Below are positions 5,608 through 18,800 of a DNA stretch of 64,000 nucleotides, in pieces (positions within the stretch are counted from its first letter, which is position 1; the number at the start of each line of letters is the position of its first letter). The translations under genes and the position numbers were made by a program. Where the stretch lies: NCBI RefSeq assembly GCF_008086115.1, contig NZ_VSIY01000004.1:124001-188000 (forward strand). The letters run 5' to 3'. The notes under the pieces were generated by a model that saw only the letters and a program-made list of their open reading frames with translations, ran no database searches and was not told the origin of the DNA. The DNA is from Maritimibacter fusiformis (GTDB lineage: Bacteria > Pseudomonadota > Alphaproteobacteria > Rhodobacterales > Rhodobacteraceae).

Positions 5608-5690
5608 GGGCTTGGACCTTTCGAATTGACACTCGCCGACACGCTAACCGGACGCGGGTCCGGCGCATAGCGTTCGCATGTCGCATCGGC

Positions 5691-5709
5691 AAAACCCGGC
5701 GCGGCCGGT
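5691..5709 (-). terminator. weak terminator candidate after livF
   Basis: Read on the minus strand, a five-base stem CCGGC/GCCGG with a three-base loop is followed by GTTTT. It stands just after the livF stop codon and before the MuiA-family gene. The stem is short and the T-run brief, so this is a weak call. Confidence 0.25.
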
Positions 5710-5718
5710 GGCACTGGC

Positions 5719-6423
5719 TCAGAGCGCGAGGTGAGTTTCCTTGATCTCGGGCCGCGCCGCGAATTCCTGCCATGTGCCGTCAAAGGCAATCCGGCCGGTG
5801 TCCATCACCACGATCCGGTCGGTCAGCTTACGGGCGAACCACAGGTTCTGCTCGCACAACAGCAGCCCCATCCCGGTGCTGTCGCACATGTCGCGGATGG
5901 TGCCGACCATGTCCTCGACAATCGCCGGGGCGACGCCCTCGGTCGGTTCATCCAGCAGCATCACGGTCGGGTGCGCGGCCACCGCCCGGGCGATCGCTAG
6001 GATCTGCTGTTGCCCGCCGGACAGCTGGAACCCCATCCGGTCGCGCAGCGGCTCGAGCATCGGGAACTGCGCCAGCACCGCATCAGGGTCGAGGCGCGGG
6101 GCCGAGGAAGGGCGGGCGTGCCCGGCGATCCTGACGTTCTCGCGCACCGTGAGGTGATGATAGATTCGCCGGTCCTCCGGCACCATCTGCAGGCCCAGCC
6201 GGGCGCGTTTATAGGCGGCGCTGCGGCCAAGGCTCCGGCCCTGCCAGCTGACCTTGCCCTCGACACGCGGGCCGGCGTTCATCAGCGATTTCAGCAGCGT
6301 CGACTTGCCCGCGCCGTTGCGCCCCACCACCGCGACGCGTTCCGTCGCGGCCATGCTGAACGACAGGTCGAACAGGATGTGGCTGGGGCCGTAGAAGGCA
6401 TTGATGTCCTCGGCGGCGATCAT
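5719..6423 (-). CDS. livF: branched-chain-type ABC transporter ATP-binding protein (LivF-like)
   Basis: One of the two ATPases of a Liv-type importer. The 234-residue protein has Walker A (GRNGAGKST, about 36-44), the ABC signature LSGGQQQ and Walker B (VMLLDEPTEGVAP), typical of LivF. The ATG at 6423 overlaps the livG stop by four bases; the longer open frame upstream is only a shadow of livG. It is the last gene of the importer set. The name marks the family; the substrate need not be branched-chain amino acids, and the neighbouring CoA and oxoacid enzymes point to a carboxylic acid. Confidence 0.93.
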   Translation of the reverse strand: MIAAEDINAFYGPSHILFDLSFSMAATERVAVVGRNGAGKSTLLKSLMNAGPRVEGKVSWQGRSLGRSAAYKRARLGLQMVPEDRRIYHHLTVRENVRIAGHARPSSAPRLDPDAVLAQFPMLEPLRDRMGFQLSGGQQQILAIARAVAAHPTVMLLDEPTEGVAPAIVEDMVGTIRDMCDSTGMGLLLCEQNLWFARKLTDRIVVMDTGRIAFDGTWQEFAARPEIKETHLAL

Positions 6424-7229
6424 GCGTCCAACTCCTCGTGCTGGTCTTCCTTGCCGAGATAGACCTCGCGCACATGCGGGTCGTTGCGGATGTCCTCGAC
6501 CGGGCCGAGCGCGATGCGCTTGCCCTGGTTCATCACCATAATCCGCGAGGCCAGTCCGAAGATCACCGACATGTCGTGTTCGGTCATGATGACGGTCAGT
6601 TTCTGCCCGGGGGCAGACAATCCGCCCTCGGTCTCGGGCTTCATCACGCGCCGGATCAGGTGGCTGACCTGCTCGCGGTCGACCGGCGACATGCCGGCGG
6701 TGGGTTCGTCCATCATCAGCACACGGGGCCGCCCCGCCAGTGTCACCGCCAGTTCCAGCCGCTTGCGGTCGCCGTGCGACAGGTCGGCGGCCTGCATCTT
6801 CGCCTTGCCCGCCAGCGTCACGCCCTCGAGCAGCCCCATCGCCTCGTCGCGGGTGGGGGCAGAGGGGCGGATCGCCCACCAGGCGTGATCGGTCCTGCCC
6901 TGTGCACGCTTTCGCGCCTCGATCGCGGTCACGACGTTGTCGAGCGCGGTCAGCGGATTGAACACCCGCGCCACCTGAAAGGTGCGCCCCATGCCGGCAC
7001 GAATGCGCAGATGCGGCGGCATCCGGGTCACGTCCTGCCCGTCGAACCGCACCGTTCCGGCATTGGCAAGCGACTCACCGGTCATCACCTTGAACAGCGT
7101 GGTCTTGCCCGCACCGTTCGGGCCGATGATGGCAAAGACCTCGCCCTCGTCCACCCGTGCGTCGATGCCGTGCAGCACCTCGATCGGGCCATAGCTCTTG
7201 GTGATGCGGTCAAGTTCGATGATGCTCAT
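6420..7229 (-). CDS. livG: branched-chain-type ABC transporter ATP-binding protein (LivG-like)
   Basis: Second ATPase of the Liv-type importer, 269 residues. Walker [10 protein letters not shown] near residue 37, signature LSHGDRKRLELA, Walker B VLMMDEPTAGMSPVD and the switch histidine in MTEHDMSV are visible. It carries the extra C-terminal segment usual for LivG. It overlaps livM (7226-7229) and livF by four bases each, so the ATPases and permease are translationally coupled. The signature reads LSHGD rather than LSGGQ, which is common in LivG proteins. Confidence 0.93.
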   Translation of the reverse strand: MSIIELDRITKSYGPIEVLHGIDARVDEGEVFAIIGPNGAGKTTLFKVMTGESLANAGTVRFDGQDVTRMPPHLRIRAGMGRTFQVARVFNPLTALDNVVTAIEARKRAQGRTDHAWWAIRPSAPTRDEAMGLLEGVTLAGKAKMQAADLSHGDRKRLELAVTLAGRPRVLMMDEPTAGMSPVDREQVSHLIRRVMKPETEGGLSAPGQKLTVIMTEHDMSVIFGLASRIMVMNQGKRIALGPVEDIRNDPHVREVYLGKEDQHEELDA

Positions 7230-8242
7230 TTGTCCGCCCGCCTTTCGGTCAGCCGGTCGATCAGCGCGTTCCAGCTGCCGGCGATCCCGGCCCGGAAGGC
7301 GAGGATGACGGCGAGAAGGATCGCCCCGGTGATGATTTCCTGAATGCCGACCAAGGTGCGGGTGGCGTATTCGATGACCATGAAGACGAAGGCCCCGATC
7401 ATCGGTCCCCAGAACGATTGGAGGCCGCCCAGCAGCGTGAACAGGATCGGCTGGGTCGAGCGGACCATGCCGGACAGTTCCGGCGTGACGATCTGCGCCC
7501 AGGGGGCATAGATCGCGCCCGCGCAGCCGGCCACCGCCCCCGAGATCACCAGCGCGGCGAGGCGGCTGCGATGCACGTCGATGCCGATGAAACCCGCGCG
7601 TTCGATATCATGACGCACTGCCAGCAGGCGGCGCCCGAACGGCCCGTGCGTCAGCCACCAGCACAGTCCCAGGATGACCGCTGCGGAAACGCAGATGAAC
7701 CAGTAGTAGGTCGGCCCCGAGGTCAGGTCGATCTCCACCACCCCCAGCGACAGCACCGGCCGGGTGATGTTGGACAGCCCGTCCTCGGACCCGAGCGATC
7801 GCGTGTGCATCAGGGTGTGACGCAGAAGCTCTGACAGCGACAGCGTGAGGATGGCGAAAAAGATGCCGGTGGTGCGCCGGAGCGCCACCAGCCCGACCAG
7901 CATCGCGACCAGCGCCCCGGCCCCGGCCCCGGCCAGAACGATCAGCAGGAAAAACTGGTCATAACCTGCCCGGATCGCTGCCGCCGACACATAGGCCCCG
8001 ATGGCGAACAGCCCGCCCGAGCCGAACGAGGCCAGCCCCGCCCAGCTGAACAGAAGGTTCCAGCCGACCGAATAGACCCCCAGCACCAGGGTCGTTCCGA
8101 CCAGGTAGAGCAGGCCGGAATTGGTCAGGAACGGCATCGCCAGCAAGGTGAGCGTGGCGAGCGCGATCAGCGTGTTGTTGATGCCCGGCCGGGTCAAAGC
8201 CGGCTTTCGCCGAGAATCCCGTTCGGCCAGAGAAGAAGACAT
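7226..8242 (-). CDS. livM: branched-chain-type ABC transporter permease (LivM-like)
   Basis: Membrane permease of 338 residues with about nine to ten hydrophobic segments starting near residue 25 and the LivM-typical stretch LAVRHDIERAGFIGIDVHRSR (cytoplasmic coupling loop). The N-terminus MSSSLAERDSRRKP is cytoplasmic and polar. The gene begins inside the 3' end of livH (49-base overlap), with GGGGATGG upstream of the ATG. It pairs with LivH to form the channel of the importer. Confidence 0.92.
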   Translation of the reverse strand: MSSSLAERDSRRKPALTRPGINNTLIALATLTLLAMPFLTNSGLLYLVGTTLVLGVYSVGWNLLFSWAGLASFGSGGLFAIGAYVSAAAIRAGYDQFFLLIVLAGAGAGALVAMLVGLVALRRTTGIFFAILTLSLSELLRHTLMHTRSLGSEDGLSNITRPVLSLGVVEIDLTSGPTYYWFICVSAAVILGLCWWLTHGPFGRRLLAVRHDIERAGFIGIDVHRSRLAALVISGAVAGCAGAIYAPWAQIVTPELSGMVRSTQPILFTLLGGLQSFWGPMIGAFVFMVIEYATRTLVGIQEIITGAILLAVILAFRAGIAGSWNALIDRLTERRADK

Positions 8243-9060
8243 GTGACCATCCCCACGTAGATCAAGACGCCCGGAAAGCCGGGCAGGAACAGGATGTTGA
8301 GACCGTCGATCACCGCCAGGATGATCGCGGCGATGAAGGCGCCCCGGATGTTGCCAAGCCCGCCGATCACGATGGTGATGAAGGCCATGAGCAGAAAGGT
8401 GTCGCCGAGCGCCGGCGACAGCGTCTGGTTGGGCAGCAACAGCCCCCCGGCCAGACCCGCCAGCGCGAAGGACGCGCCGACCACCATCCTGACCCCGAGC
8501 GGCCCGTTGACGCCCATCAGGTTGCTCATCCAGCCGTCACGGGCGATGGCCACGGCCAGCTTGCCGCTCCACGAACAGTGGATGACATGGTCGAGCACCA
8601 GAAACACCGCCACGCCCGCCCCGATGATGAACAGCGAGAAGCTGGGCACGAAGGTTCCGAAGATCACGACGCCCAGGTCCAGCCCAGGCGGTGGATCGAC
8701 CGAGTGGAATTCGAGCCCCCAGGTCATCTTGATGGCGCCGACGCACAGCAGCATCACTGCGTAGGTGGCAATCAGCATGAAGTGTTCGTCGACATCCTCG
8801 AGCTTGCTGAGAACGAAGTGCTGGACCACAAGGCCCAGCACCCCGACCACCAGCCCCGACAGCATCGACGCGCCGATCAGAACCCAGATCGACCCCGGCA
8901 TGTCGCCGATCAGCGTGCTGGTCAGGTAGGCGCCCAGCATGAAGAAGGCACCATGCGCAAAGTTCAGAATGCGCATGATGCCGAAGATCAGCGTCAGCCC
9001 GGCGGCGACCAGAAAGACCGCCATGCCGAGCGTCAGGCTGTTGATGAACGTGAACAGCAC
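8194..9060 (-). CDS. livH: branched-chain-type ABC transporter permease (LivH-like)
   Basis: Membrane permease of 288 residues, strongly hydrophobic throughout, with the LivH hallmarks GLTLIFGIMRILNFAHG near the N-terminus and the coupling loop ARDGWMSNLMGVN in the second half. Translation probably starts at a GTG (9060). It follows the binding-protein gene by only 12 bases and runs into livM. Together with LivM it forms the transmembrane pore. Confidence 0.92.
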   Translation of the reverse strand: MLFTFINSLTLGMAVFLVAAGLTLIFGIMRILNFAHGAFFMLGAYLTSTLIGDMPGSIWVLIGASMLSGLVVGVLGLVVQHFVLSKLEDVDEHFMLIATYAVMLLCVGAIKMTWGLEFHSVDPPPGLDLGVVIFGTFVPSFSLFIIGAGVAVFLVLDHVIHCSWSGKLAVAIARDGWMSNLMGVNGPLGVRMVVGASFALAGLAGGLLLPNQTLSPALGDTFLLMAFITIVIGGLGNIRGAFIAAIILAVIDGLNILFLPGFPGVLIYVGMVTCLLLWPNGILGESRL

Positions 9061-9072
9061 GGCCCGGGCCGC

Positions 9073-10311
9073 CTATTGCAGTTCACGGCCGGGTGTGGCC
9101 GGTTCGAGGAAATCGACCCCGGCCATCTGGACGCTTTCGAACACCTCCCAGCCGGTTTCGCTGCTCTCGGACTTGCCGAAGCGGATATAGGTCAGGTCGC
9201 CCGCGAACGAATGGTCCTCGGTGCGGAAGGCGACGGTGCCGGTCGCGCCCTGGAAGCTCTGCGCCTCGATCGCCGGGATCAGGTCGGCGGCGGCGGTCGA
9301 TCCGGTGGACCCGATCGCCTCGGCCAGCGTCGCGATACAGTCGTGAGCGACGCCGACGAACCAGTTGGGATAGGGATCGTCGCGCTTCTCGATATAGGCG
9401 GCCAGCAGCGCATCCGAGGTCGGGTTGTTTTCGGCCGCCTGCGGATACCAGCCGGTCCAGCTCCACAGCGAGTCGAGCATCTTGTTGCCCAGCGCCTTTG
9501 CCACCGTCAGCTCGTTGGCGCTGTCGCACATCAGCTTGAACTGCTTGTCCATCTGGAAGCTGCGCGCCTGCTTGTAATAGGTGATCGCATCGGCGCCCTG
9601 AAGGCAGTTGAACAGCCCTTCGGCGCCTGAATTGGTCACCTGCGAGATCTGATTGCGGAAATCGGCGCCGTTGTAGGGCACCAGGATCGGCTCCTGCATG
9701 TTGACCTCGCGCCCGTCGGCGGCGGCCTTGGCGCGCATCCCGGCTTCGAAGGCGTCGGTGATGTCCTTCAGAGATTGCACATCCGAGCGCACCATCGCCC
9801 AGTTGCTGATCTCGGGGAAGCGTTCGGCCATCAGGTGGCCGTAGCCGCCGAAACACATCGGCGAGGAATAACCCAGCCGGAACATGTTGCGCGTGTAGTT
9901 CTGGTGCGTGATCGCCAGCGACGAGGTGCCGACCACCATCATCGTGACATCGTTCTGCTCGAGCAGCGGCAGCGTCGCCAGCACGTTGGCGGTAAAGGTG
10001 CCCTGCGCGAACAGCTTGACGCCGTCGCCGGCCAGTTCGCGGAAAGCCACCAGCGCGCCGTCGGGCGAGTTGCGGTCGTCGCGCACGATCAGCTCGATCG
10101 GCTGACCGTTGACGCCGCCCCTGGCGTTGATCAGGTCGACGGCAAGCTCGCAGCCGTCCTGAATATACTGGCCATAGATCTGGCCCGGTCCGCTCAACGT
10201 GGTGATCAGGCCGATCCTGATCGGCTCCGATTGCGCGCGCAGGAACTTCGGCGCGGCGGCGGTTCCCAGAACGGCGGTCGTGCCGAGCATGAAATGGCGT
10301 CTGTCCAACAT
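9073..10311 (-). CDS. ABC transporter substrate-binding protein (LivK/type I periplasmic fold)
   Basis: Periplasmic ligand-binding protein of 412 residues that selects the substrate for the Liv-type importer. The N-terminus (MLDRRHFMLGTTAVLGTAAAP) looks like a signal peptide with a possible twin-arginine start. The mature part begins IRIGLITTLSGPGQIYGQ, typical of the peripla_BP family, and contains LINARGGVNGQPIEL. It is longer than LivK of enterics, like binding proteins for aromatic or short-chain acids, but the ligand cannot be read from sequence. It lies 74 bases downstream of the ligase-like gene. Confidence 0.9.
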   Translation of the reverse strand: MLDRRHFMLGTTAVLGTAAAPKFLRAQSEPIRIGLITTLSGPGQIYGQYIQDGCELAVDLINARGGVNGQPIELIVRDDRNSPDGALVAFRELAGDGVKLFAQGTFTANVLATLPLLEQNDVTMMVVGTSSLAITHQNYTRNMFRLGYSSPMCFGGYGHLMAERFPEISNWAMVRSDVQSLKDITDAFEAGMRAKAAADGREVNMQEPILVPYNGADFRNQISQVTNSGAEGLFNCLQGADAITYYKQARSFQMDKQFKLMCDSANELTVAKALGNKMLDSLWSWTGWYPQAAENNPTSDALLAAYIEKRDDPYPNWFVGVAHDCIATLAEAIGSTGSTAAADLIPAIEAQSFQGATGTVAFRTEDHSFAGDLTYIRFGKSESSETGWEVFESVQMAGVDFLEPATPGRELQ

Positions 10312-10385
10312 TTTGTCTCCTCCCGTGAGTGTTGTTCTTCAGTGTTGTGCCGCCCCGTTCTTCCTCCCCGGGGCGGGCCGATGTG

Positions 10386-11879
10386 TCAGGCCATGTCGGC
10401 CTGCACGATCTGCTTGATGCGCGCGCGCATGATCTGCCCGGTCGCCGGCGTTCGCGGCAGTTCGGGCAATGCGATGATGCGGCGCGGATGCTTGTAGGGG
10501 GCGATGCGCCCCTCAAGATATGAGCGGATGGCCGAGACCGGCGGGCAGGGCGTGCCGTTTTCCAGTTCGGTCACCATGCAGACGATTTCGCCCCAGGTGC
10601 TGTCGTCCAGCCCGACCACGGCCACGCCCCGGATGCCGGGAAACCCCTGCAGGGCCAGTTCGACCTCGGCGGGCGCGATGGCCTCACCGCCCGAGCGGAT
10701 CACTTCGCGGGCGCGGCCGGTGATGGTGATGAACCCGTCGGCATCGCACTCGGCCAGATCGCCTGTCCGATACCAGCCGTCCTGAAACACCTCGGTGCTC
10801 TGCTCCGGAAGGTCGAAATAGCCCGACATCACCGTCGGCCCGCGCAACTGCAACTCGCCGTCACAGATGCGCGCCTCGATGCCCGGACCCGGCATCCCGA
10901 CCGAGCCGGGGCGGCGCGAGATTTCGTCGTCGTGCAGCGAGCAGGCACCGCCGAATTCGGTCGAGCCATAGAAAACGCCCCGGCTGGCATTGGGAAACCG
11001 TTCGGCCAGCCGAACCATCAACGCCGGATCAAAGCGGGACGTGCCCGAGCCGATGGCACGCAACCGGGTGCCGTCGAAGGCGACGGGGCTGGCGAGGATA
11101 CGCTCCCACACCGCCGGGATGGCATAGAGGAAGGCCGGATCGTGCCGCGCGATGGCCTCGGCGATGCCGTCGCCGCTGGCCTCGGGCACGAAATGGATCG
11201 GGCGTTTGTGCGCCCAGTTCTCAAGCAGGTAGTTCCATCCGGCCCAGTGAAACATCGGAAAGGTCAGAAGTTCGCCCCGCCCGCCGGCGGACACGAACCG
11301 CGAGGCCCCGAGATGCGAGCGCAGCCAGCTTGCCCGGTGCGACAGAACCACCCCCTTGGGTCGACCGGTCGAGCCGGAGGTGAGAAAGATCGCGTGCGCA
11401 TCGTCTTCCCGGGTCGGCGAGGGAGCATCGACCTGTGCGGGCGCGGCCTCAAGTCGTGGGCCGAGTGCGTCCGAGCCGTCCGGTGCCGTATCGCCCAAGG
11501 TCGCATGGCGCGGCACGGCGGTGTGCAGAGCAGCCGTCATTTCCGCCCCGCGGGTCTGGTCCTGCACCAGCACCGCCGGGCGCAGGTAGGCGACGATCTC
11601 GGCAACTTCGGCCAGGTTGCAGGCGGGGTTGATCGGGGTAAAGGCCGCGCCGATGTGCTGGCTGGCGAAGAACAACGCGATCTGCTCCAGCGTGAATTCG
11701 GCCTGCACCGCAACCCGGTCGCCATGCCCGAGGCCCAGATCGCCCAGCACCTTGACATAGCGCCCGGTCAACGACCTGACATCGTCGAACCGCATCGCCT
11801 CGTCGCCCAGTGTCGCGGCCAGCGCATCGGGCGCGGTGTTGGCCGCGACGGTCAGGATGGAATGGACAAGCTGGGTCAT
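10386..11879 (-). CDS. AMP-dependent synthetase/ligase homologue with altered A10 lysine
   Basis: ANL-superfamily protein of 497 residues, predicted to activate a carboxylic acid to an acyl-AMP/acyl-CoA. Visible motifs are the phosphate-binding loop FLTSGSTGRPKGVVLSH (about 169-185), GSTEFGG, the hinge region YRTGDLAECDADGF and GRAREVIRSGGE. In the A10 motif PRTPATGQIMRARI the normally conserved lysine is Gln 482 (CAG codon at 10434-10436), so adenylation may be impaired or differently supported. The gene is 24 bases downstream of the TPP-subunit gene and should be in the same transcript. The substrate is unknown. Confidence 0.88.
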   Translation of the reverse strand: MTQLVHSILTVAANTAPDALAATLGDEAMRFDDVRSLTGRYVKVLGDLGLGHGDRVAVQAEFTLEQIALFFASQHIGAAFTPINPACNLAEVAEIVAYLRPAVLVQDQTRGAEMTAALHTAVPRHATLGDTAPDGSDALGPRLEAAPAQVDAPSPTREDDAHAIFLTSGSTGRPKGVVLSHRASWLRSHLGASRFVSAGGRGELLTFPMFHWAGWNYLLENWAHKRPIHFVPEASGDGIAEAIARHDPAFLYAIPAVWERILASPVAFDGTRLRAIGSGTSRFDPALMVRLAERFPNASRGVFYGSTEFGGACSLHDDEISRRPGSVGMPGPGIEARICDGELQLRGPTVMSGYFDLPEQSTEVFQDGWYRTGDLAECDADGFITITGRAREVIRSGGEAIAPAEVELALQGFPGIRGVAVVGLDDSTWGEIVCMVTELENGTPCPPVSAIRSYLEGRIAPYKHPRRIIALPELPRTPATGQIMRARIKQIVQADMA

Positions 11880-11903
11880 GGCTGATGGTCTCCGCGTTAC
11901 CGA

Positions 11904-12710
11904 TCAGTCGTCACTGTCGTCATCGGATGCCGCGCCGGCATCCTTCAATTCGCCTAGGCCATAGACCTTTCCCAGCGATTCCATCATGTATTCGGCGCCT
12001 TCGCCGGGCGGCACGAACCAGCCGGTGGGACACATCGTGAGAATCTCCATCAGCGCCAGCCCATGCCCGTCCATCGGGCGCTGAAACGCCTTGCGGATCA
12101 TCTTGCGCGTCGCGTTGATCGAGGCGGCATTGTGGACAGAGCCGCGCGCGACATAGCCGGCGCCGGGCATCTGCGACAGGATCTCGGCCAGTTGGATGGG
12201 GTTGCCGTGATAGCCCGCATCGCGCCCCTCGATGGTGTTCTTGGTGCGTTGCCCGATCACCGACGAGGCCGTCATCTGCCCGCCGGTGTCGCCGAACACG
12301 CCATTGTTCAGCATGAAACAGGTGACATCCTCGCCGCGTGCGGCGGTCTGCATGATTTCGGCCAACCCTTCACTGGTCATGTCGCCGTCGCCTTGAAGCG
12401 TCCAGATCGCCACGCCGGGCCGCATCCGCTTCATCCCGGTGGCAACCGCAGGCGCGCGCCCGTGCAGGCACAGTGTCGAGTCCACATCCATCAGCATGAT
12501 GAACGAGCCGTAGCAGCCGTGCCCGAGGATGCAGACGTTGTTTTGCGTCAGTTCAAGCTCCTCGATCACCTCGAGGATCAGACGGATCGCCACCGGCTCG
12601 CCGCAACCGGCGCACAGGTGGTGGTCTTCCTTCAACAGCAGCGACGGCTTGAACTCGGCGGTCTTCGTCGCGGGGCGCTGGGGCGGCAGGCTGGTGTCGA
12701 TGGCTCTCAC
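11904..12710 (-). CDS. 2-oxoacid:ferredoxin oxidoreductase, TPP-binding beta subunit
   Basis: Carries thiamine diphosphate and decarboxylates a 2-oxoacid to the acyl-CoA level. The 268-residue protein shows HHLCAGCGEP (C33, C36), the TPP/Mg motif GDGD at 107-110 with the asparagines of LNNGVFGDTGGQ about 25 residues on, and the HGR motif. This matches the beta subunits of VOR/KOR/POR-type enzymes. It overlaps the alpha-subunit gene by four bases. The N-terminal 20 residues are variable. The oxoacid (branched-chain, aryl or other) cannot be decided from sequence. Confidence 0.92.
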   Translation of the reverse strand: MRAIDTSLPPQRPATKTAEFKPSLLLKEDHHLCAGCGEPVAIRLILEVIEELELTQNNVCILGHGCYGSFIMLMDVDSTLCLHGRAPAVATGMKRMRPGVAIWTLQGDGDMTSEGLAEIMQTAARGEDVTCFMLNNGVFGDTGGQMTASSVIGQRTKNTIEGRDAGYHGNPIQLAEILSQMPGAGYVARGSVHNAASINATRKMIRKAFQRPMDGHGLALMEILTMCPTGWFVPPGEGAEYMMESLGKVYGLGELKDAGAASDDDSDD

Positions 12711-13822
12711 AGGTATGCTCCCATTCCGGTGTAGGGCAGTTCGGTCAGCGGCTTGCCGGCCAACTGGTCCAGGATGCGGGTGCGGATCACGCGGGCATCC
12801 ATCAGAGGCCCGATGTTGAGGCCGGAATCGTCGAAACTGATCCCGCCGATCGGCTTGATCCGGTCGCGGCCTTCAACGGCAAGGCGCACGTCGTCGATCA
12901 TCTGCCCGGCGTTCAATTCGAACACGAGGATATTGCTGGCGTTTTCGGTCGCCGCCTCGAGGGCTTCGGAGGGGAAGGGCCAGAGCGTGACCGGGCGGAA
13001 AAACCCGATCTTGTGCCCTTCGGCGCGCAATTCGCGCACCACGTGTTCCACGAACTTGCCGCCGGAGCCGAAGGCTACGACCACGCATTCGGCGTCGTCG
13101 CAAAAGCCCTGTTCATGGCGTGCCTCGGCCTTGGCGATCCGGTCGAACTTGTCCGCGATCTGGCGCCAATAGCCGTCGGGCCCGACGCCGGGCCGGTTCG
13201 CCTTGCCGCCACCGAAGGTCCAGATCCATCGAGACGCGCCGGTGCCGCCCATGGTGCCGTCCAGCGCCCAGTCTTTCGGGGGCAGCGTTTCAAGCTCCGG
13301 CACCGGCAGGGCGGTGCCCATCTGGGTGCGCGCAATCAGGTTGTCGGCCATAAAGATCACCGGCACGCGGTATTTGTCGGCGACGTGAAAGGCGAGGTGC
13401 GTGTGCTCGACCGCTTCGTGCAGATCTTTTGGCGCGAAGGTCACGGTGCGATAATCGCCCCAGCCGCCGCCCCGGGTCGCCTGGAAATAATCCTGCTGAT
13501 TGCGGGCGATGTTGAAGATCACCAGCGGCGTTTCGTTCAGCGCCGCCTCGGCAATCGCCTCCTGCATCAGGGCCAGCCCCTGACCGCAGGAGCCGGTCGC
13601 CGCCCGTGCCCCGACCTGGGCCGCGCCCAGCGCCATGTTGACCGCCTGAAGCTCGGAATCGGCATTGATGCAGACCCCGTCGACCCGGGGCAACTTGGCT
13701 GCCATATGCTCCAGCAATTCGGTCGCGGGGGCCATGGGATAGCCGGCAAAGAACCGGGCGCCGGCCAGAAGAGCGGCCTCGACGATGGCTTCGGAGCCGT
13801 CCAGCAGGCGCATTTCGGTCAT
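12707..13822 (-). CDS. 2-oxoacid:ferredoxin oxidoreductase, alpha subunit (VorB-like)
   Basis: Catalytic partner of the TPP subunit, 371 residues. The N-terminal POR_N domain is seen in EAALLAGARFFAGYPMAPATE and GSCGQGLALMQEAIAEA, followed by ARNQQDYFQATRGGG and a central/C-terminal transketolase-C-like domain (VVVAFGSGGKFVEHVV, FFRPVTLWPFP). It most resembles 3-methyl-2-oxobutanoate (2-ketoisovalerate) ferredoxin oxidoreductase alpha chains. ATGA overlaps join it to the ferredoxin gene upstream and the beta gene downstream, so the subunits are made together. Confidence 0.92.
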   Translation of the reverse strand: MTEMRLLDGSEAIVEAALLAGARFFAGYPMAPATELLEHMAAKLPRVDGVCINADSELQAVNMALGAAQVGARAATGSCGQGLALMQEAIAEAALNETPLVIFNIARNQQDYFQATRGGGWGDYRTVTFAPKDLHEAVEHTHLAFHVADKYRVPVIFMADNLIARTQMGTALPVPELETLPPKDWALDGTMGGTGASRWIWTFGGGKANRPGVGPDGYWRQIADKFDRIAKAEARHEQGFCDDAECVVVAFGSGGKFVEHVVRELRAEGHKIGFFRPVTLWPFPSEALEAATENASNILVFELNAGQMIDDVRLAVEGRDRIKPIGGISFDDSGLNIGPLMDARVIRTRILDQLAGKPLTELPYTGMGAYL

Positions 13823-14109
13823 CGGATCGTCTCCTCGGTCGCCGTGGTCTCGTCGATGGGGTCGTCATAGCGATAGATTTCGAACACGAAGTCGGGGCAG
13901 ACCTGCAGGCAGGCCGTGCAGCCGGTGCAGCCCGGCTCCAGGATCGGGTAGAGATACCCGAGGCTGTTGCCCTCGGTTGACATGGTCAGCACCTGCGGCG
14001 GGCATGCCGGGATGCACAATTCGCAGCCCTTGCAACGGTCGATGTCGATCACCACGGTGCCGCGCGTGACCGCGCGCGCCGGCGCCTTGTCTTCTGTCCG
14101 AGCGGTCAT
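13819..14109 (-). CDS. 2-oxoacid:ferredoxin oxidoreductase, 2x[4Fe-4S] ferredoxin-like delta subunit
   Basis: Electron-transfer subunit of 96 residues with two complete [4Fe-4S] motifs: C26, C29, C32, C36 (CKGCELCIPACP) and C61, C64, C67, C71 (CTGCTACLQVCP). It would pass electrons from the TPP site to a soluble acceptor. It overlaps both the gamma and alpha genes by four bases, fixing it as a subunit and not a free ferredoxin. It has an unusual acidic tail (DDPIDETTATEE). Confidence 0.93.
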   Translation of the reverse strand: MTARTEDKAPARAVTRGTVVIDIDRCKGCELCIPACPPQVLTMSTEGNSLGYLYPILEPGCTGCTACLQVCPDFVFEIYRYDDPIDETTATEETIR

Positions 14110-14702
14110 GCCGGGATGCTTTCGGCCAGATACGGCGCCGGGTGGCGGCCCGAGAGACCCTCGGCCCGGATGTGTTCGGCGCCCAGCGCGATGGCGCTGG
14201 CGTTGGTTCCGGCATGTTGCTTGCGGTAGGGCGGCAGTTGTTCGGTCATCGCCTCTTCGAGCGACTGAAGCCCGATCGCGCCGGTCAGTTCCGAAAACGC
14301 CCCCATCATCGCCATCGAGGCCGACAGCCGGTTGCCCGCCCGGGTGCCCAGCGCAAGGGCGGGGACGCGCACCAGTATGTGCCCTTCGGTGTCGGGCAGC
14401 GCGTCCGCGATGGTTTCCTCGGCCAGGATCAGACTGCCGGGACGCAGGCGCGGGCCGACCTTTTCCCAGAACGAATGCGACATCGCGATGGCGGTGCCCG
14501 CCGAGGGCAGGTTGGGCAGCGCGCGCACGGGGTCGGGTCCGATCACCACGGTAACGACCGAACTGCCGCCGCGCATGTGCCCGCCGAATTCGCCCGAAAA
14601 CATGACGTGACGATCCTCGCGCAGCGCGGCCAGCGCGATCGTCTTGCCGATCAGTTGAACGCCCTGACCGCCGATACCGGACACGAATAGATCGAGTTCC
14701 AA
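14106..14702 (-). CDS. 2-oxoacid:ferredoxin oxidoreductase, gamma subunit
   Basis: POR gamma-type subunit of 198 residues with the diagnostic FVSGIGGQGVQLIGKT at the N-terminus and FGGHMRGG. I place the start at the TTG at 14702: AAGGAG stands eight bases upstream, the family's beta strand starts immediately after it, and a promoter-like pair lies just before. An in-frame ATG at 14792 would add 30 polar residues unlike the family and would sit upstream of that promoter. It is the first gene of the minus-strand operon gamma-delta-alpha-beta-ligase-Liv. Confidence 0.9.
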   Translation of the reverse strand: MELDLFVSGIGGQGVQLIGKTIALAALREDRHVMFSGEFGGHMRGGSSVVTVVIGPDPVRALPNLPSAGTAIAMSHSFWEKVGPRLRPGSLILAEETIADALPDTEGHILVRVPALALGTRAGNRLSASMAMMGAFSELTGAIGLQSLEEAMTEQLPPYRKQHAGTNASAIALGAEHIRAEGLSGRHPAPYLAESIPA

Positions 14703-14729
14703 CAGTTCCGCTCCTTGCCGTTTCGACGA

Positions 14730-14758
14730 GGATAATGCACAGCGATTTCGCATTTCAA
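14730..14758 (-). promoter_or_regulatory. putative promoter of the oxidoreductase/Liv operon
   Basis: On the minus strand TTGAAA (14758-14753), a 17-base spacer and TTATCC (14735-14730) precede the gamma-subunit TTG start by about 30 bases, leaving room for a short leader with the AAGGAG ribosome site. The -35 is good and the -10 is weak. It is consistent with the TTG start and with transcription separate from the TetR gene. Confidence 0.4.
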
Positions 14759-14900
14759 TGCTTTTTTCATCGTCAGACCGAAATTTCGTCACTGAATAGA
14801 AAAACGGTCGAGACGCACAGCAATTCCGACCCGCCGTGGCAGCGGTCAGACCCGCGCAGCGGGCATCGGGATCAATTGGAGGGGTAGAGAATCGGTCGCG

Positions 14901-15623
14901 TCAGTCGCGCGCCGGTCCGGGTTTTCGTGCGGGCGACGGCTCATCCGTCATGAGGCCGCCGAACAGCATCCTGGTCATTTCCGCGGCGATGTTGTCGGGC
15001 GTCCCGATCTCTGGCCGATACCATTCGCGCGACCAGATCACGGTTCCGAGGATCACCTGCGTGGCAATCGAAGGGCTGAGCCCCGGGCGCAATTCGCCGC
15101 GCGCGGCGGCTTCGCTGACCAGGTCGCGCCAGATGTCGAGGAACTCGTGCAGCAGCTCGTAATGCTCGTCCTTCACCTCGACCGGCAGTTGATTCACGAT
15201 ATTCCCGTGGGCCGCGATCCCTGCCTTGTTCGCGGCGGACACCCGCATGTAGGTCTGGATCGCGGCGGCGATCTTGTCGCGGCTGCTGGTCTCGGGGCCG
15301 AGGTCTTCGAGCGTCTGGCACAGGCTGTCGAGGTTGGTGCGGATCACTCGGTTCACGATCTCGGCGGCGATCACGTCCTTGGTGGTGAAGTGATAGCGCA
15401 GGGCGGTCACATGCATCCCCAGCTCGTCCGAGATGTCCGACAGCTTGGTCAGGTAGTAACCCTTGCGCGCGAAGATCTGCGCGGCGGTTTCGAGGATGGC
15501 GGCCTGCACGCCCTCGGTCTTGCGGCTGATCTTGCGATTGCTCGCCAGCGGCGAGGCACGATTGACGCGCTTGCTGCCCGTCTTTTTCTGCGGTGCCGCG
15601 TCTGAGCGTCGTGAACCTGGCAT
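14901..15623 (-). CDS. TetR/AcrR-family transcriptional regulator
   Basis: DNA-binding repressor of 240 residues. A basic N-terminal extension (about 35 residues) precedes the TetR helix-turn-helix (ILETAAQIFARKGYYLTKLSDISDELGM through LRYHFTTKDVIAAEIV, about 41-90). The rest is the variable ligand-binding helical domain. It stands between the minus-strand oxidoreductase operon and the plus-strand SDR/reductase pair, so it is the natural candidate to regulate both, perhaps sensing an acyl-CoA or the imported acid. That regulatory scope is inference. Confidence 0.92.
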   Translation of the reverse strand: MPGSRRSDAAPQKKTGSKRVNRASPLASNRKISRKTEGVQAAILETAAQIFARKGYYLTKLSDISDELGMHVTALRYHFTTKDVIAAEIVNRVIRTNLDSLCQTLEDLGPETSSRDKIAAAIQTYMRVSAANKAGIAAHGNIVNQLPVEVKDEHYELLHEFLDIWRDLVSEAAARGELRPGLSPSIATQVILGTVIWSREWYRPEIGTPDNIAAEMTRMLFGGLMTDEPSPARKPGPARD

Positions 15624-15666
15624 TGCGTTTCTCTCGTTCCGGGCGGTCGAGCGTTCAGATTAGCAA

Positions 15667-15697
15667 GGTGTATGCGTCTATGCACCATGCCTTTCAA
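15667..15697. promoter_or_regulatory. putative TetR promoter with overlapping palindromic operator
   Basis: On the minus strand TTGAAA (15697-15692) and CATACA (15674-15669) are separated by 17 bases upstream of the TetR gene. An imperfect palindrome of the form GGTGyAT...ATrCACC (15667-15686) fills the spacer and the -10, where a bound repressor would block RNA polymerase. It lies in the divergent TetR/SDR intergenic region, so it may control both directions. Based on sequence symmetry only. Confidence 0.45.
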
Positions 15698-15763
15698 ACT
15701 TTTCTGTTGCAACATGAAAAAAACGAAGTTTAAGGTTATCTCGACGCAAAAGGGGAACGTGCC

Positions 15764-16513
15764 GTGGAACTGTCGTTTGCGGAAAAACGGGTGTTGATCG
15801 CCGGGGCAAGTCGCGGTCTGGGGCGTGTGGCGGCGCGGGCGATGGCCTCTGCCGGTGCGCGTGTGGCACTGGGAAGCCGCGACGACGCCGCATTGCAGGC
15901 GGTGCTGTCGGGCCTTCCCGGCACGGGCCATTTCGCGGCATCGGCGGATCTTGCCACGGCGGCCGGGTGCGCGGATTGGGCCGGGCGGGCGCAGGCGGCG
16001 CTGGGCGGTGTGGATGTTCTGCTTGTGACCGTCACGGCGGGCGCGACCGGGCGATCCGATGATGACTTCCGCACGAGCTTCGAAACCGACCTGATGGCGC
16101 CGGTCCGGCTGGTCGAGGCCTGCCGCGACGCCCTTGTCGCCAGTCAGGGCGCGGTGCTTGTGTGCTCGTCGCGCACCGCGCGCGGGCATGTGCCGCAGAC
16201 CATGGCCTACGGCGCGGCCAAGCTGGGGCTGGAACATGTCGTGACCTGCCTGGCCGCCGAATTCGCCGACAGGGCCGTGCGGATCAACGCCATCGCCCCC
16301 GGCTCGACGCGCTTTGATGGAGGCTTCTGGGACCAGGCCGAGACCGAGCGGCCCGACCTCTACCGGCGCACGCTGGCAAAGCTGCCGGCGGGGCGTCTGG
16401 GAACCGCCGCCGACATCCTGCCGAGCGTGCTGTTCCTGTGCTCCGACGCCGCGCGCTGGATCACCGGGCAGACGCTGCTGGTCGATGGTGGCCAGACTCT
16501 GGCCACGGATTAA
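15764..16513 (+). CDS. SDR-family NAD(P)-dependent oxidoreductase
   Basis: Classical short-chain dehydrogenase of 249 residues. The nucleotide-binding motif GASRGLG is at 14-20, a catalytic serine at 135/136 and Y149-x3-K153 (YGAAK) complete the active site, and the C-terminus ITGQTLLVDGGQ is typical. The N-terminal cofactor loop with SRDD suggests NADP preference weakly. It starts at a GTG with AAAGGGG upstream. It is the first gene of the divergent unit and is followed by ferredoxin-NADP reductase. A plausible role is oxidising a hydroxyl intermediate to the 2-oxoacid, which is inference. Confidence 0.9.
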   Translation: MELSFAEKRVLIAGASRGLGRVAARAMASAGARVALGSRDDAALQAVLSGLPGTGHFAASADLATAAGCADWAGRAQAALGGVDVLLVTVTAGATGRSDDDFRTSFETDLMAPVRLVEACRDALVASQGAVLVCSSRTARGHVPQTMAYGAAKLGLEHVVTCLAAEFADRAVRINAIAPGSTRFDGGFWDQAETERPDLYRRTLAKLPAGRLGTAADILPSVLFLCSDAARWITGQTLLVDGGQTLATD

Positions 16514-16538
16514 CCCACCGCTGCAATTCGGAGAGACC

Positions 16539-17321
16539 ATGCCCGCAAGCGATCTTCAGACCGTGACCGACGTCACCCATTGGGACGACAACCTGTTCTC
16601 GTTCCACGTCACCCGACCCGAAAGCCTGCGGTTCCGGTCCGGTGAGTTCGTGATGATCGGACTGCCCGACGACAACGGAAAACCGCTGCTGCGCGCCTAT
16701 TCCATCGCCGCGCCGTTCTGGGCGGATGAGCTGGAATTCTACTCCATCAAGGTCGAGAACGGCCCCCTGACCTCGCGTCTGCGCCACATCAAGCCCGGCG
16801 ACGAGATCATCCTGCGCCCCAAGCCCGTCGGCACGCTGGTGCACGACGCGCTCTTGCCCGGCAAGCGCCTCTGGCTGCTGGCCACCGGCACGGGGTTCGC
16901 GCCCTTCGCCTCGATCCTGCGCGATGTCGAGACCTATGAGCGTTTCGAACAGGTCATCGTCATGCACGCCTGCCGGACCGCCAGCGAACTGGCATACGGC
17001 GCCAGCGTTATCGCCGCGCTGCCGGAGACGCCGCTGGTCGATGAACTGTGCAACGGGCGCGTGCTTTATTATCCGACCACAACCCGGGAGCCGTCGGCGC
17101 AGATGGGGCGGATCACAGACACGATTGCCTCGGGGCAGGTGTTTCGCGACCTCGGCGTCGACGCCTTCGATCCGGCGCGGGACCGGGCGATGGTCTGCGG
17201 CAGCTATGCCTTCAACGTCGATGCCAAAGCGCTGCTGGAAAGGCTCGGTCTGCGCGAGGGCGCGAACAGCGAGCCGCGTGAGTTCGTGGTGGAAAAGGCG
17301 TTTGTCGGGGACGGGGTGTGA
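16539..17321 (+). CDS. ferredoxin--NADP reductase
   Basis: Bacterial-type FNR of 260 residues that exchanges electrons between ferredoxin and NADP(H). The FAD motif RAYS is at 52-55, the NADP motif GTGFAPF at 117-123, a CGSYAFN segment lies near the end and the C-terminus EFVVEKAFVGDGV is typical of subclass I FPR. The start at 16539 has CGGAGAG upstream; the longer frame from 16314 is inside the SDR gene. Its place beside a ferredoxin-dependent oxoacid oxidoreductase suggests it drains those electrons to NADP+, although a general FNR role is possible. Confidence 0.93.
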   Translation: MPASDLQTVTDVTHWDDNLFSFHVTRPESLRFRSGEFVMIGLPDDNGKPLLRAYSIAAPFWADELEFYSIKVENGPLTSRLRHIKPGDEIILRPKPVGTLVHDALLPGKRLWLLATGTGFAPFASILRDVETYERFEQVIVMHACRTASELAYGASVIAALPETPLVDELCNGRVLYYPTTTREPSAQMGRITDTIASGQVFRDLGVDAFDPARDRAMVCGSYAFNVDAKALLERLGLREGANSEPREFVVEKAFVGDGV

Positions 17322-17342
17322 CCGGGCGAACGAAAACGCCAT

Positions 17343-17374
17343 AAAAAAACCGCCGGACCTGACAGGCCCGGCGG
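17343..17374 (-). terminator. rho-independent terminator of asd
   Basis: Read on the minus strand, a 12-base stem with one mismatch (CCGCCGGGCCTG/CAGGTCCGGCGG, 17374-17350) is followed by seven T residues (17349-17343). It stands 25 bases after the asd stop codon. The AGGCCCGGCGG core is followed on the plus strand by no T-run, so it works mainly for asd. Confidence 0.88.
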
Positions 17375-17398
17375 CGATTTCCAGAAACCCGAAGAGAT

Positions 17399-18421
17399 CT
17401 AGCCCTTCTTCAGAACCTCGCGGCCCAGAAGTTCGGCGATCTGCACCGCGTTCAGCGCCGCGCCCTTGCGCAGATTGTCGGACACGCACCACAGGTTCAG
17501 CCCGTTCTCGATGGTCGAGTCCTGCCGGATACGGCTGATGAAGGTGGCATAATCGCCGGCGCATTCCACCGGGGTGACATAGCCACCGTCCTCGCGCTTG
17601 TCGACGACCAGGATGCCCGGCGCCTCGCGCAGGATGTCGCGGGCCTCGTCCTCGTCGAGGAAATCCTCGAACTCGATGTTGATCGCTTCGGAATGACCGA
17701 CGAACACCGGCACCCGCACGCAGGTGGCCGTGACCTTGATCTTCGGGTCGACGATCTTCTTGGTCTCGGCGACCATTTTCCATTCCTCCTTGGTCGAGCC
17801 GTCTTCGAGAAAGACGTCGATATGGGGAATGACGTTGAAGGCGATCTGCTTGGTGAACTTCGACGGCTCGCGTTCCTGACCCGGCACATACATGCCCTTG
17901 GTCTGGTCCCAAAGCTCGTCCATGCCTTCCTTGCCCGCGCCCGACACCGATTGATAGGTCGAGACCACGACGCGCTTGATCCGGGCGCGGTCATGCAGCG
18001 GTTTCAGCGCCACCACCATCTGCGCGGTCGAACAGTTGGGGTTGGCGATGATGTTCTTCTTGGAATAGCCGTGGATCGCCTCGGGGTTCACCTCGGGCAC
18101 GATCAGCGGCACCTGCGGGTCGTAGCGGTAGAGCGACGAGTTGTCGATCACCACACAGCCCGCCTTGGCGGCGATGGGCGCATATTTCTTCGTCGCGTCC
18201 GAACCGATGGCGAACAGCGCCATGTCCCAGCCGGTGAAGTCGAAGGTATCCAGATCCTTGGTCTTGAGGGTCTCGTCGCCAAAACTCACTTCGGTGCCGA
18301 GAGAGCGGCGCGAGGCGAGCGCGACGATCTCGTCGATCGGGAACTGGCGTTCGGCCAGAATGTTCAGCATTTCACGGCCCACGTTGCCCGTGGCGCCGCA
18401 GACGACGACCTTGTAGCCCAT
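17399..18421 (-). CDS. asd: aspartate-semialdehyde dehydrogenase
   Basis: Reduces aspartyl phosphate to aspartate semialdehyde with NADPH in the lysine/threonine/methionine and diaminopimelate pathway. The 340-residue protein begins MGYKVVVCGATGNVGREM (Rossmann motif GATGNVG, 9-15) and has the active-site cysteine C130 in NPNCSTAQM and the region VGHSEAINIEF. The ATG at 18421 is preceded by AAGGAG at nine bases; an in-frame start 12 codons upstream adds residues foreign to the family. It stands alone, with its own terminator. Confidence 0.97.
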   Translation of the reverse strand: MGYKVVVCGATGNVGREMLNILAERQFPIDEIVALASRRSLGTEVSFGDETLKTKDLDTFDFTGWDMALFAIGSDATKKYAPIAAKAGCVVIDNSSLYRYDPQVPLIVPEVNPEAIHGYSKKNIIANPNCSTAQMVVALKPLHDRARIKRVVVSTYQSVSGAGKEGMDELWDQTKGMYVPGQEREPSKFTKQIAFNVIPHIDVFLEDGSTKEEWKMVAETKKIVDPKIKVTATCVRVPVFVGHSEAINIEFEDFLDEDEARDILREAPGILVVDKREDGGYVTPVECAGDYATFISRIRQDSTIENGLNLWCVSDNLRKGAALNAVQIAELLGREVLKKG

Positions 18422-18800
18422 CTGGCTGTGCTCCTTCGTTGACTTCTTGGCGATCAAGACGCCCGGCTGATACCTGAAACCCCCCGAAGGTAAAAGGGGG
18501 GTGCACGCCGATTAACGTTGACTTCATCCCGATATGATGTGATGAGGCCGCAACTTTCTTGCGGCCGCGTGAGCCGCCCGCCGAGACGACCCCGGGTCGC
18601 CGGCACGGAAAGACATGAGGCGCGATGAACCGGATCGGTCGGCGTCACACAGGTTCCCACATCACGCAGGGGGGTCAACGGGCCGGACGGTGGCAGGGCA
18701 GGGGCCTTGCCGCGAGGCTGGACCGAACCTTTGCACTGACCGGGCGCATTCTGCGCCGCGGACCCGTCATGCGGCCCCTTGGCGCCGCGGAAAGAGATAC
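18422..18800. other. long intergenic region/leader upstream of the DEAD-box helicase
   Basis: About 380 bases without a convincing gene between divergent asd and the helicase. It contains a perfect eight-base stem-loop GGCCGCAA-CTTTC-TTGCGGCC (18546-18566) without a T-run, and a -10-like TATGAT near 18535 that would give the helicase a leader of about 260 bases. Long structured leaders are common for cold-regulated DEAD-box helicase genes. Open frames here have no ribosome sites or recognisable sequence. Confidence 0.45.

What the first reader, a model, noticed from the sequence alone, without database searches (positions are those of the whole stretch)
5719..17321. Import-to-acyl-CoA cassette built on an Fe-S 2-oxoacid oxidoreductase
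Seen: gamma, delta, alpha and beta subunits of a VOR/KOR-type enzyme joined by ATGA overlaps, then an AMP-ligase homologue and all five Liv transporter genes on one strand; a TetR regulator; a divergent SDR and ferredoxin-NADP reductase. Known: such four-subunit enzymes oxidise 2-oxoacids to acyl-CoA with ferredoxin and are often oxygen-sensitive, so their use in a probably aerobic marine-type alphaproteobacterium is notable. Inferred: a dedicated catabolic route, with the SDR making the oxoacid and FNR recycling electrons to NADPH. The substrate is unknown; this is the best candidate for an undescribed system in the window.
Basis: partly seen in the sequence, partly recalled or inferred. Interest (0 to 1): 0.62.

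Follow-up and report, generated by a model that had tools for sequence, protein, structure and literature searches.

The report
Mobile 2-oxoacid-to-acyl-CoA gene island
A respiring alphaproteobacterium carries an inserted set of genes, also found in soil and water bacteria of several phyla, that probably takes up and oxidises an unidentified 2-hydroxy or 2-oxo acid with an iron-sulphur enzyme normally associated with anaerobes, nearly always partnered by a CoA-ligase look-alike that has lost its key catalytic lysine.

Summary
5719-17321 encodes gamma, delta, alpha and beta subunits of a four-subunit Fe-S/TPP 2-oxoacid oxidoreductase, an AMP-ligase homologue, five Liv genes, TetR, SDR and a ferredoxin-NADP reductase. 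It behaves as one mobile unit. It lies between asd and muiA, which adjoin each other in 7 of 22 same-family relatives. The alpha gene is in 1 of 293 genomes of the order. The same set recurs in Aminobacter, Corticibacterium, Nitratireductor, Azospirillum and (without FNR) Terrarubrum, mostly with an added ferredoxin FdxA. The oxidoreductase is an undescribed subfamily of the VorB-like group in Actinomycetota, Myxococcota and Pseudomonadota, with a remodelled substrate pocket. The ligase homologue co-evolves with it like a fifth subunit, and in 73 of 73 readable members the adenylation lysine (motif A10) is Gln. D-2-hydroxyacid dehydrogenases recur beside the core elsewhere, supporting 2-hydroxyacid to 2-oxoacid to acyl-CoA catabolism, with electrons to NADP through FdxA/FNR. 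The substrate, and what the Gln-ligase does, remain unknown. I found no description of this system in the papers searched. New variant of a known kind; interest 0.6.

The parts
5719..6423 (-). LivF-type ABC ATPase
   Evidence: tblastn 59% to the Aminobacter cassette gene at the same place; ATGA overlap with LivG
6420..7229 (-). LivG-type ABC ATPase
7226..8242 (-). LivM-type permease
8194..9060 (-). LivH-type permease
   Evidence: 72% identical to the Aminobacter cassette gene
9073..10311 (-). periplasmic substrate-binding protein (Peripla_BP_6), not a curated Leu/Ile/Val binder
   Evidence: PF13458 1.6e-59; NF011933 68 bits against cut-off 477; nearest solved chain 3i45
10386..11879 (-). AMP-ligase (ANL) homologue with Gln482 in place of the A10 lysine
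   Evidence: PF00501 and PF13193; A10 K to Q in 73/73 readable subfamily members; model pLDDT 91.7
11904..12710 (-). beta subunit: TPP-binding, four Cys for the proximal 4Fe-4S cluster, Asp at the StOFOR Leu123 position
   Evidence: PF02775
12707..13822 (-). alpha subunit: POR_N + PFOR_II, YPMAP motif, shortened active-site loop
   Evidence: PF01855 and PF17147
13819..14109 (-). delta subunit, 2x[4Fe-4S] ferredoxin (two CxxCxxCxxxCP motifs)
   Evidence: PF12838; sequence
14106..14792 (-). gamma subunit (POR domain); true start uncertain
   Evidence: PF01558 9e-27
14901..15623 (-). TetR-family regulator, upstream of gamma on the same strand
   Evidence: PF00440 and PF17932; 51% to the Aminobacter cassette TetR
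15708..15719 (+). putative operator half-site TGCAACATGAAA between tetR and SDR
   Evidence: 11/12 match to the half-site of the palindrome upstream of gamma in Aminobacter cassettes
15764..16513 (+). SDR oxidoreductase, divergent from tetR
   Evidence: PF13561; 43% to the SDR of the Aminobacter and Terrarubrum cassettes
16539..17321 (+). ferredoxin-NADP reductase-like flavoprotein
   Evidence: best NCBIfam match NF008178, 117.9 bits, below cut-off 390; 50% to the cassette FNR of Aminobacter
5608..17398 (.). insertion unit between muiA (3973-5607) and asd (17399-18457)
   Evidence: asd and muiA adjoin in 7 of 22 same-family relatives examined, two of them also keeping the DEAD helicase upstream of asd

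Best explanation
The island is a horizontally acquired, TetR-controlled catabolic module for an unidentified 2-hydroxy/2-oxo carboxylic acid. A Liv-type ABC transporter imports the acid (family-level inference). A dehydrogenase makes or supplies the 2-oxoacid; GlcD or D-2-hydroxyacid dehydrogenases do this in relatives, the host enzyme here is unknown, and the SDR is a candidate only. The GDAB complex binds the 2-oxoacid by alpha Arg107, decarboxylates it on TPP and passes two electrons through the beta and delta 4Fe-4S clusters to a ferredoxin (FdxA; in this host a chromosomal copy), from which FNR reduces NADP+; the acyl group ends as acyl-CoA. The AMP-ligase homologue acts as a dedicated partner, most likely in the CoA/thioester half of the chemistry or in holding or channelling the acyl product, not as an ordinary ATP-dependent acid:CoA ligase, because its adenylation lysine is missing. 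Shown here by computation: gene content, conservation, insertion, co-evolution, residue signatures. Inferred: reaction direction, electron route, substrate class, role of the Gln-ligase.
For: Unit: the same set and core order in 11/11 alphaproteobacterial loci with flank, and an empty site between asd and muiA in relatives. Oxidoreductase chemistry: POR, POR_N, PFOR_II, TPP and 2x4Fe-4S domains; TPP-activating Glu and carboxylate Arg kept in 85/85, the four beta Cys kept wherever alignable; alpha fold matches OGOR, OorA and PFOR. Electron route: FdxA and FNR recur in the cassettes; a chromosomal FdxA is present in this genome. Substrate side: GlcD-type flavoprotein in 3 alphaproteobacterial cassettes, nearest solved relative mitochondrial D-lactate dehydrogenase at 1e-155; a D-2-hydroxyacid dehydrogenase-family gene near the core in 14/23 clade II loci. 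Product side: an acyl-CoA dehydrogenase near the core in 21/24 clade III loci. Partner ligase: Mantel r 0.84 with alpha and 0.90 with beta, as high as alpha-beta 0.87; among 2958 plasmids with ligase matches the best nine, and the only listed ones at 40% identity or more, are the nine with alpha. Missing lysine: against a lysine reported as fully conserved in class I adenylate-forming enzymes (PMC6122825, PMC8388817). Precedent: EdcC, an indolepyruvate-oxidoreductase-family enzyme, works in aerobic estrogen breakdown (PMC7793797).
Against: No substrate, no expression data and no biochemistry. The window lacks GlcD, the D-2-hydroxyacid dehydrogenase and a cassette FdxA. The carboxylate-binding Thr of YPITP, essential in the Sulfolobus enzyme (PMC5020499), is Ala here and Ser, Ala or Leu across clade I, so a plain 2-oxoacid substrate is not certain. 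A standard OFOR needs no ligase-like partner, so the role given to that protein is a guess. Nine genomes with alpha have no Gln-ligase match, among them two large Virgisporangium isolate drafts, so it is not universal.
Confidence: 0.5

Rival explanations
1. Ordinary peripheral pathway: the AMP-ligase homologue is an active acid:CoA ligase despite the Gln, activating the same or a related acid, and the oxidoreductase handles a parallel 2-oxoacid.
For: Motifs A3, A5 and A7 and the A8 Arg are kept; the model takes the usual ANL fold close to ATP-bound MatB.
Against: The A10 lysine is Gln in 73/73 readable members with a one-residue insertion and a new invariant Arg395, while 22/22 full-length generic ligases in the same loci keep Lys; Lys mutants of other ANL enzymes lose or greatly slow adenylation (PMC6122825).
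Confidence: 0.2
2. Reductive direction: an imported acid is turned into acyl-CoA, and NADPH through FNR and ferredoxin drives the oxidoreductase to carboxylate it to a 2-oxoacid.
For: FNR and ferredoxin can run either way; OFORs are reversible (established knowledge); a transporter and a ligase homologue are encoded.
Against: The ligase lacks its adenylation lysine. GlcD/LDHD-type dehydrogenases and acyl-CoA dehydrogenases beside the core fit oxidation. The host is respiratory.
Confidence: 0.1
3. The oxidoreductase does not use CoA: it oxidises its substrate to an enzyme-bound or free acyl product that the Gln-ligase takes over and converts to a thioester, the two proteins together being one new enzyme system.
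For: Co-evolution as tight as between true subunits; loss of the adenylation lysine only; pocket changes in alpha and beta (acid at beta 123, 10-11 residue loop deletion, T to S/A/L); oxalate oxidoreductase shows that OFOR relatives can act without CoA (established knowledge).
Against: No direct evidence on CoA; some genomes have alpha but no Gln-ligase match.
Confidence: 0.15
4. Chance neighbours: separate transporter, ligase and oxidoreductase operons that happen to adjoin.
For: The Liv genes of this type are absent near the core outside the alphaproteobacterial clade.
Against: 11/11 conserved set in several orders, joint insertion, co-evolution.
Confidence: 0.02

Closest known systems
VorB-type 2-oxoisovalerate:ferredoxin oxidoreductase (NCBIfam NF005507; Bacteroidota, Clostridia)
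   Same: best-scoring family for alpha (293.7 bits); separate gamma, delta, alpha, beta genes
   Different: below the curated cut-off of 399; split from the VorB references by a long 100/99 branch; active-site loop of 3 residues against 13-14; Asp/Glu at beta 123 against Met/Leu; has a ligase-like partner and sits in aerobes
Phenylglyoxylate oxidoreductase PadEFGHI (Azoarcus/Aromatoleum)
   Same: OFOR relative used to break down an aromatic acid to an acyl-CoA
   Different: curated models far from met (alpha 62 bits against 700); no Pad-type NADH subunit in the cassette, electrons apparently go to FdxA/FNR; Gln-ligase partner
EdcC of Novosphingobium estrogen degradation (PMC7793797)
   Same: OFOR-superfamily enzyme serving catabolism in an aerobic alphaproteobacterium, thought to make a CoA ester from a 2-oxoacid
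   Different: indolepyruvate-oxidoreductase family; different substrate; no Gln-ligase or Liv transporter described with it in the passages read
Class I adenylate-forming (ANL) acyl-CoA ligases: FadD13, MatB, feruloyl-CoA synthetase
   Same: fold (TM 0.90 to MatB) and motifs A3, A5, A7, A8 Arg
   Different: A10 Lys replaced by Gln in every readable member; linked to one oxidoreductase subfamily
Oxalate oxidoreductase (Moorella)
   Same: OFOR relative with altered carboxylate motif
   Different: YPIRP motif and Arg31 absent (YPMAP here); NF045791 46 bits against cut-off 500

Membership tests
2-oxoacid:acceptor oxidoreductase (OFOR) superfamily | gamma (POR), delta (2x4Fe-4S), alpha (POR_N/PFOR_II) and beta (TPP_C) domains | tested here: met
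   all above Pfam cut-offs
2-oxoacid:acceptor oxidoreductase (OFOR) superfamily | four beta Cys, TPP-activating Glu, carboxylate Arg (StOFOR Arg344) | tested here: met
   conserved in all rows that could be aligned
2-oxoacid:acceptor oxidoreductase (OFOR) superfamily | YPITP motif Thr that binds the substrate carboxylate | tested here: not met
   YPMAP in the window; S/A/L in clade I, T in clades II and III; essential in StOFOR (PMC5020499). The superfamily is defined by its domains; this departure marks a divergent subfamily, not a standard OFOR
VOR (VorB, NF005507) | curated model score | tested here: not met
   293.7 against 399 bits
KOR/OGOR | curated models NF006412 and NF007206; beta Lys49 that StOFOR needs for 2-oxoglutarate | tested here: not met
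   237.9 against 411 and 178.6 against 579 bits; Ser at beta 49
Phenylglyoxylate dehydrogenase (Pad) | curated Pad models | tested here: not met
   alpha 62.3 against 700, beta 36.3 against 700, gamma 38.5 against 300 bits
Oxalate oxidoreductase | YPIRP motif, NF045791 | tested here: not met
   YPMAP; 46.3 against 500 bits
ANL acyl-CoA ligase | AMP-binding and C-terminal domains; motifs A3, A5, A7, A8 Arg | tested here: met
ANL acyl-CoA ligase | catalytic lysine of motif A10 | tested here: not met
   Gln in 73/73 readable members
ANL acyl-CoA ligase | ATP-dependent CoA thioester formation | not testable with these tools
   needs the purified protein
Liv/HAAT ABC transporter | two permeases, two ATPases, Peripla_BP_6 binding protein | tested here: met
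Branched-chain amino acid transporter (specificity) | curated Leu/Ile/Val SBP model NF011933 | tested here: not met
   68.1 against 477 bits
Ferredoxin-NADP reductase | FAD and NAD(P) domains | tested here: met
   PF00970 and PF00175; equivalog NF008178 below cut-off, so activity is inferred

The most novel reading that the evidence does not exclude
The oxidoreductase and the lysine-less AMP-ligase homologue form one new enzyme system, found in aerobes of several phyla, in which the ANL protein performs only acyl transfer/thioesterification (or another non-adenylating step) on the product of a CoA-independent or otherwise altered TPP/Fe-S oxidation: a new use of both folds.
Probability: 0.3. 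Interest if true: 0.82.

Novelty: new variant of a known kind. Interest (0 to 1): 0.6.

Why it matters
Four-subunit ferredoxin-linked 2-oxoacid oxidoreductases are mostly known from anaerobes. Here a whole subfamily (248 relatives confirmed in one scan of species genomes) sits largely in lineages usually regarded as aerobic, and in alphaproteobacteria in mobile catabolic islands. It is tied to an adenylate-forming-family protein without the lysine that is otherwise conserved throughout that class. If the Gln-ligase is a true partner, it would be a natural case of an ANL protein whose adenylation half has been switched off, and it would correct automatic annotations ("3-methyl-2-oxobutanoate dehydrogenase", "AMP-binding protein/CoA ligase") in many genomes.

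Tried and rejected
VOR, KOR, phenylglyoxylate, indolepyruvate and oxalate enzymes as family labels: curated models not met and residue tests. A 2-oxoglutarate substrate: the beta Lys49 equivalent is absent. Loss of the CoA-binding Lys125 of StOFOR as an argument against CoA use: dropped, because the VorB references also have Gly there. Foreign base composition as evidence of transfer: none seen, 64-68% GC throughout; the empty site and the sporadic distribution carry that claim. Substrate from the binding protein's nearest solved chains: matches too weak (best 69.7 bits). Literature for a prior description: eight searches found none, but the library lacks most subscription journals. A first Pfam call failed on a bad coordinate and was repeated without it. 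Clusters c7 and c19 in the first neighbour map are antisense shadow ORFs of beta and were ignored; the profile map replaces them.
Full report
Observation. On the minus strand run tetR, gamma, delta, alpha, beta, an AMP-ligase homologue, the binding protein and livH, livM, livG, livF; SDR and FNR run divergently. Overlaps are ATGA (gamma/delta, delta/alpha) and GTGA (alpha/beta).

It is one inserted unit. In this genome the island lies between muiA (3973-5607) and asd (17399-18457). In 7 of 22 same-family relatives muiA directly follows asd, and in two of these the DEAD-box helicase also precedes asd, exactly as in the window without the island. The alpha subunit is found in 1 of 293 genomes of the order and 4 of 385 of the class at the thresholds used. 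The base composition does not differ from the flanks, so the source was either similar or the island is not very recent.

It recurs whole elsewhere. A plasmid search gave 73-76% identical alpha subunits in six Aminobacter plasmids and one of Terrarubrum. The neighbourhoods read (two Aminobacter, one Terrarubrum) hold the same genes in the same core order, with FNR after livF in Aminobacter (absent in Terrarubrum) and a ferredoxin gene fdxA beside gamma. A scan of species genomes found 248 relatives, of which 80 loci were kept. With profiles of each component, 12 loci form the alphaproteobacterial cassette clade; all 11 with at least 5 kb of flank carry GDAB, ligase, five Liv genes, TetR and SDR, and 10 each carry FNR and FdxA. 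The window has no cassette FdxA, but its genome has one on another contig.

The oxidoreductase is a distinct subfamily. The 85 alpha sequences are set apart from the VorB references by a 100/99-supported branch of length 1.88; only three distant references were used. Alpha scores 293.7 bits on the VorB model against a cut-off of 399. Between the substrate-carboxylate Arg and the next conserved Asp there are 3 residues in 85/85 against 13-14 in the references. At the position of Sulfolobus beta Leu123, which lines the substrate side chain (PMC5020499), all 37 readable clade I members have Asp and all 46 readable clade II/III members have Glu, where references have Met or Leu. The Thr of YPITP is kept in clades II and III but is Ser, Ala or Leu in clade I, Ala in the window. 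Catalytic Glu, Arg and cluster Cys are kept. So the enzyme is very probably active but with an altered pocket; a polar or cationic side chain is one reading of the acid, which I treat as a lead only.

The ligase homologue is a tied partner and is abnormal. Sequence distances of ligase and alpha correlate at r = 0.84, ligase and beta at 0.90, compared with 0.87 for alpha and beta; none of 999 permutations came near (shared ancestry contributes to all of these). Among 2958 plasmids with ligase matches the nine best, and the only listed ones at 40% identity or more, are the nine that carry alpha; the next is at 32-34%. Counting ligases within the loci (63) and on other contigs of the same genomes (10), 73 of the 82 that could be examined have one; nine genomes lack a match, including two large Virgisporangium isolate drafts. 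In all 73 readable A10 motifs (63 in the loci, 10 more) the lysine is Gln within LPRTxATGQ-like sequence, with a one-residue insertion; generic ligases in the same loci have Lys, 22/22 among full-length ones. A second invariant change puts Arg (window Arg395) at an A8 position that is mostly Ile in generic ligases. The literature read calls this lysine fully conserved and needed for adenylation (PMC6122825, PMC8388817). The predicted fold is nevertheless that of a normal ANL enzyme.

Direction and substrate. Three alphaproteobacterial cassettes carry a GlcD-like flavoprotein whose nearest solved relative is mitochondrial D-lactate dehydrogenase (1e-155). Fourteen of 23 clade II loci carry a gene of the D-2-hydroxyacid dehydrogenase family. 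Most clade III loci (21/24) carry an acyl-CoA dehydrogenase. These point to 2-hydroxyacid to 2-oxoacid to acyl-CoA and on to beta-oxidation-like steps. The SDR is conserved, but it also persists beside GlcD, so it need not be the oxoacid maker. The host has six haem-copper oxidase matches and normal 2-oxoacid dehydrogenase E1 genes, so the island is not needed for central metabolism.

Regulation. Aminobacter cassettes share a palindrome TTCAACATGAAATTTCATGTTSAA upstream of gamma and half-sites between SDR and tetR. The window has TGCAACATGAAA at 15708 between tetR and SDR. This is a post hoc motif and only suggestive.

Verdict. What it works like: a ferredoxin-linked 2-oxoacid catabolic module. 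What it is: a new subfamily of the OFOR superfamily plus a lysine-less ANL partner, in mobile islands in alphaproteobacteria and in mainly aerobic lineages elsewhere. What remains open: substrate, the CoA step and the partner's reaction.

Noticed in passing
L001 (G000:C11:227246-230908): The same genome carries a second, unrelated OFOR with separate gamma and alpha ORFs (POR_N 243 bits).
   Followed up: partly
L053, L054: Two records titled Bifidobacterium breve place among Acidimicrobiia in the alpha tree; probably mislabelled metagenome assemblies.
   Followed up: no
L040 and L043: An 'Acidobacteriota' and an 'Actinomycetes' MAG have almost identical alpha subunits and flanks; one contig is probably binned wrongly.
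   Followed up: no
L044, L047: Virgisporangium genomes have the oxidoreductase but no Gln-ligase match; their best ligase matches have a normal lysine. A test case for whether the partner is dispensable.
   Followed up: partly
L021, L026, L028, L032-L034, L037: In these actinobacterial loci the delta gene sits apart from gamma, behind a GntR-like regulator.
   Followed up: no
L083:12615-12944 and clade II loci: A conserved small cupin-like protein of about 109 aa without a Pfam match lies beside the core in 8 of 23 clade II loci.
   Followed up: no
L008:9774-10427: The Terrarubrum cassette carries an extra alpha/beta hydrolase between tetR and fdxA, perhaps releasing the acid from an ester.
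   Followed up: no
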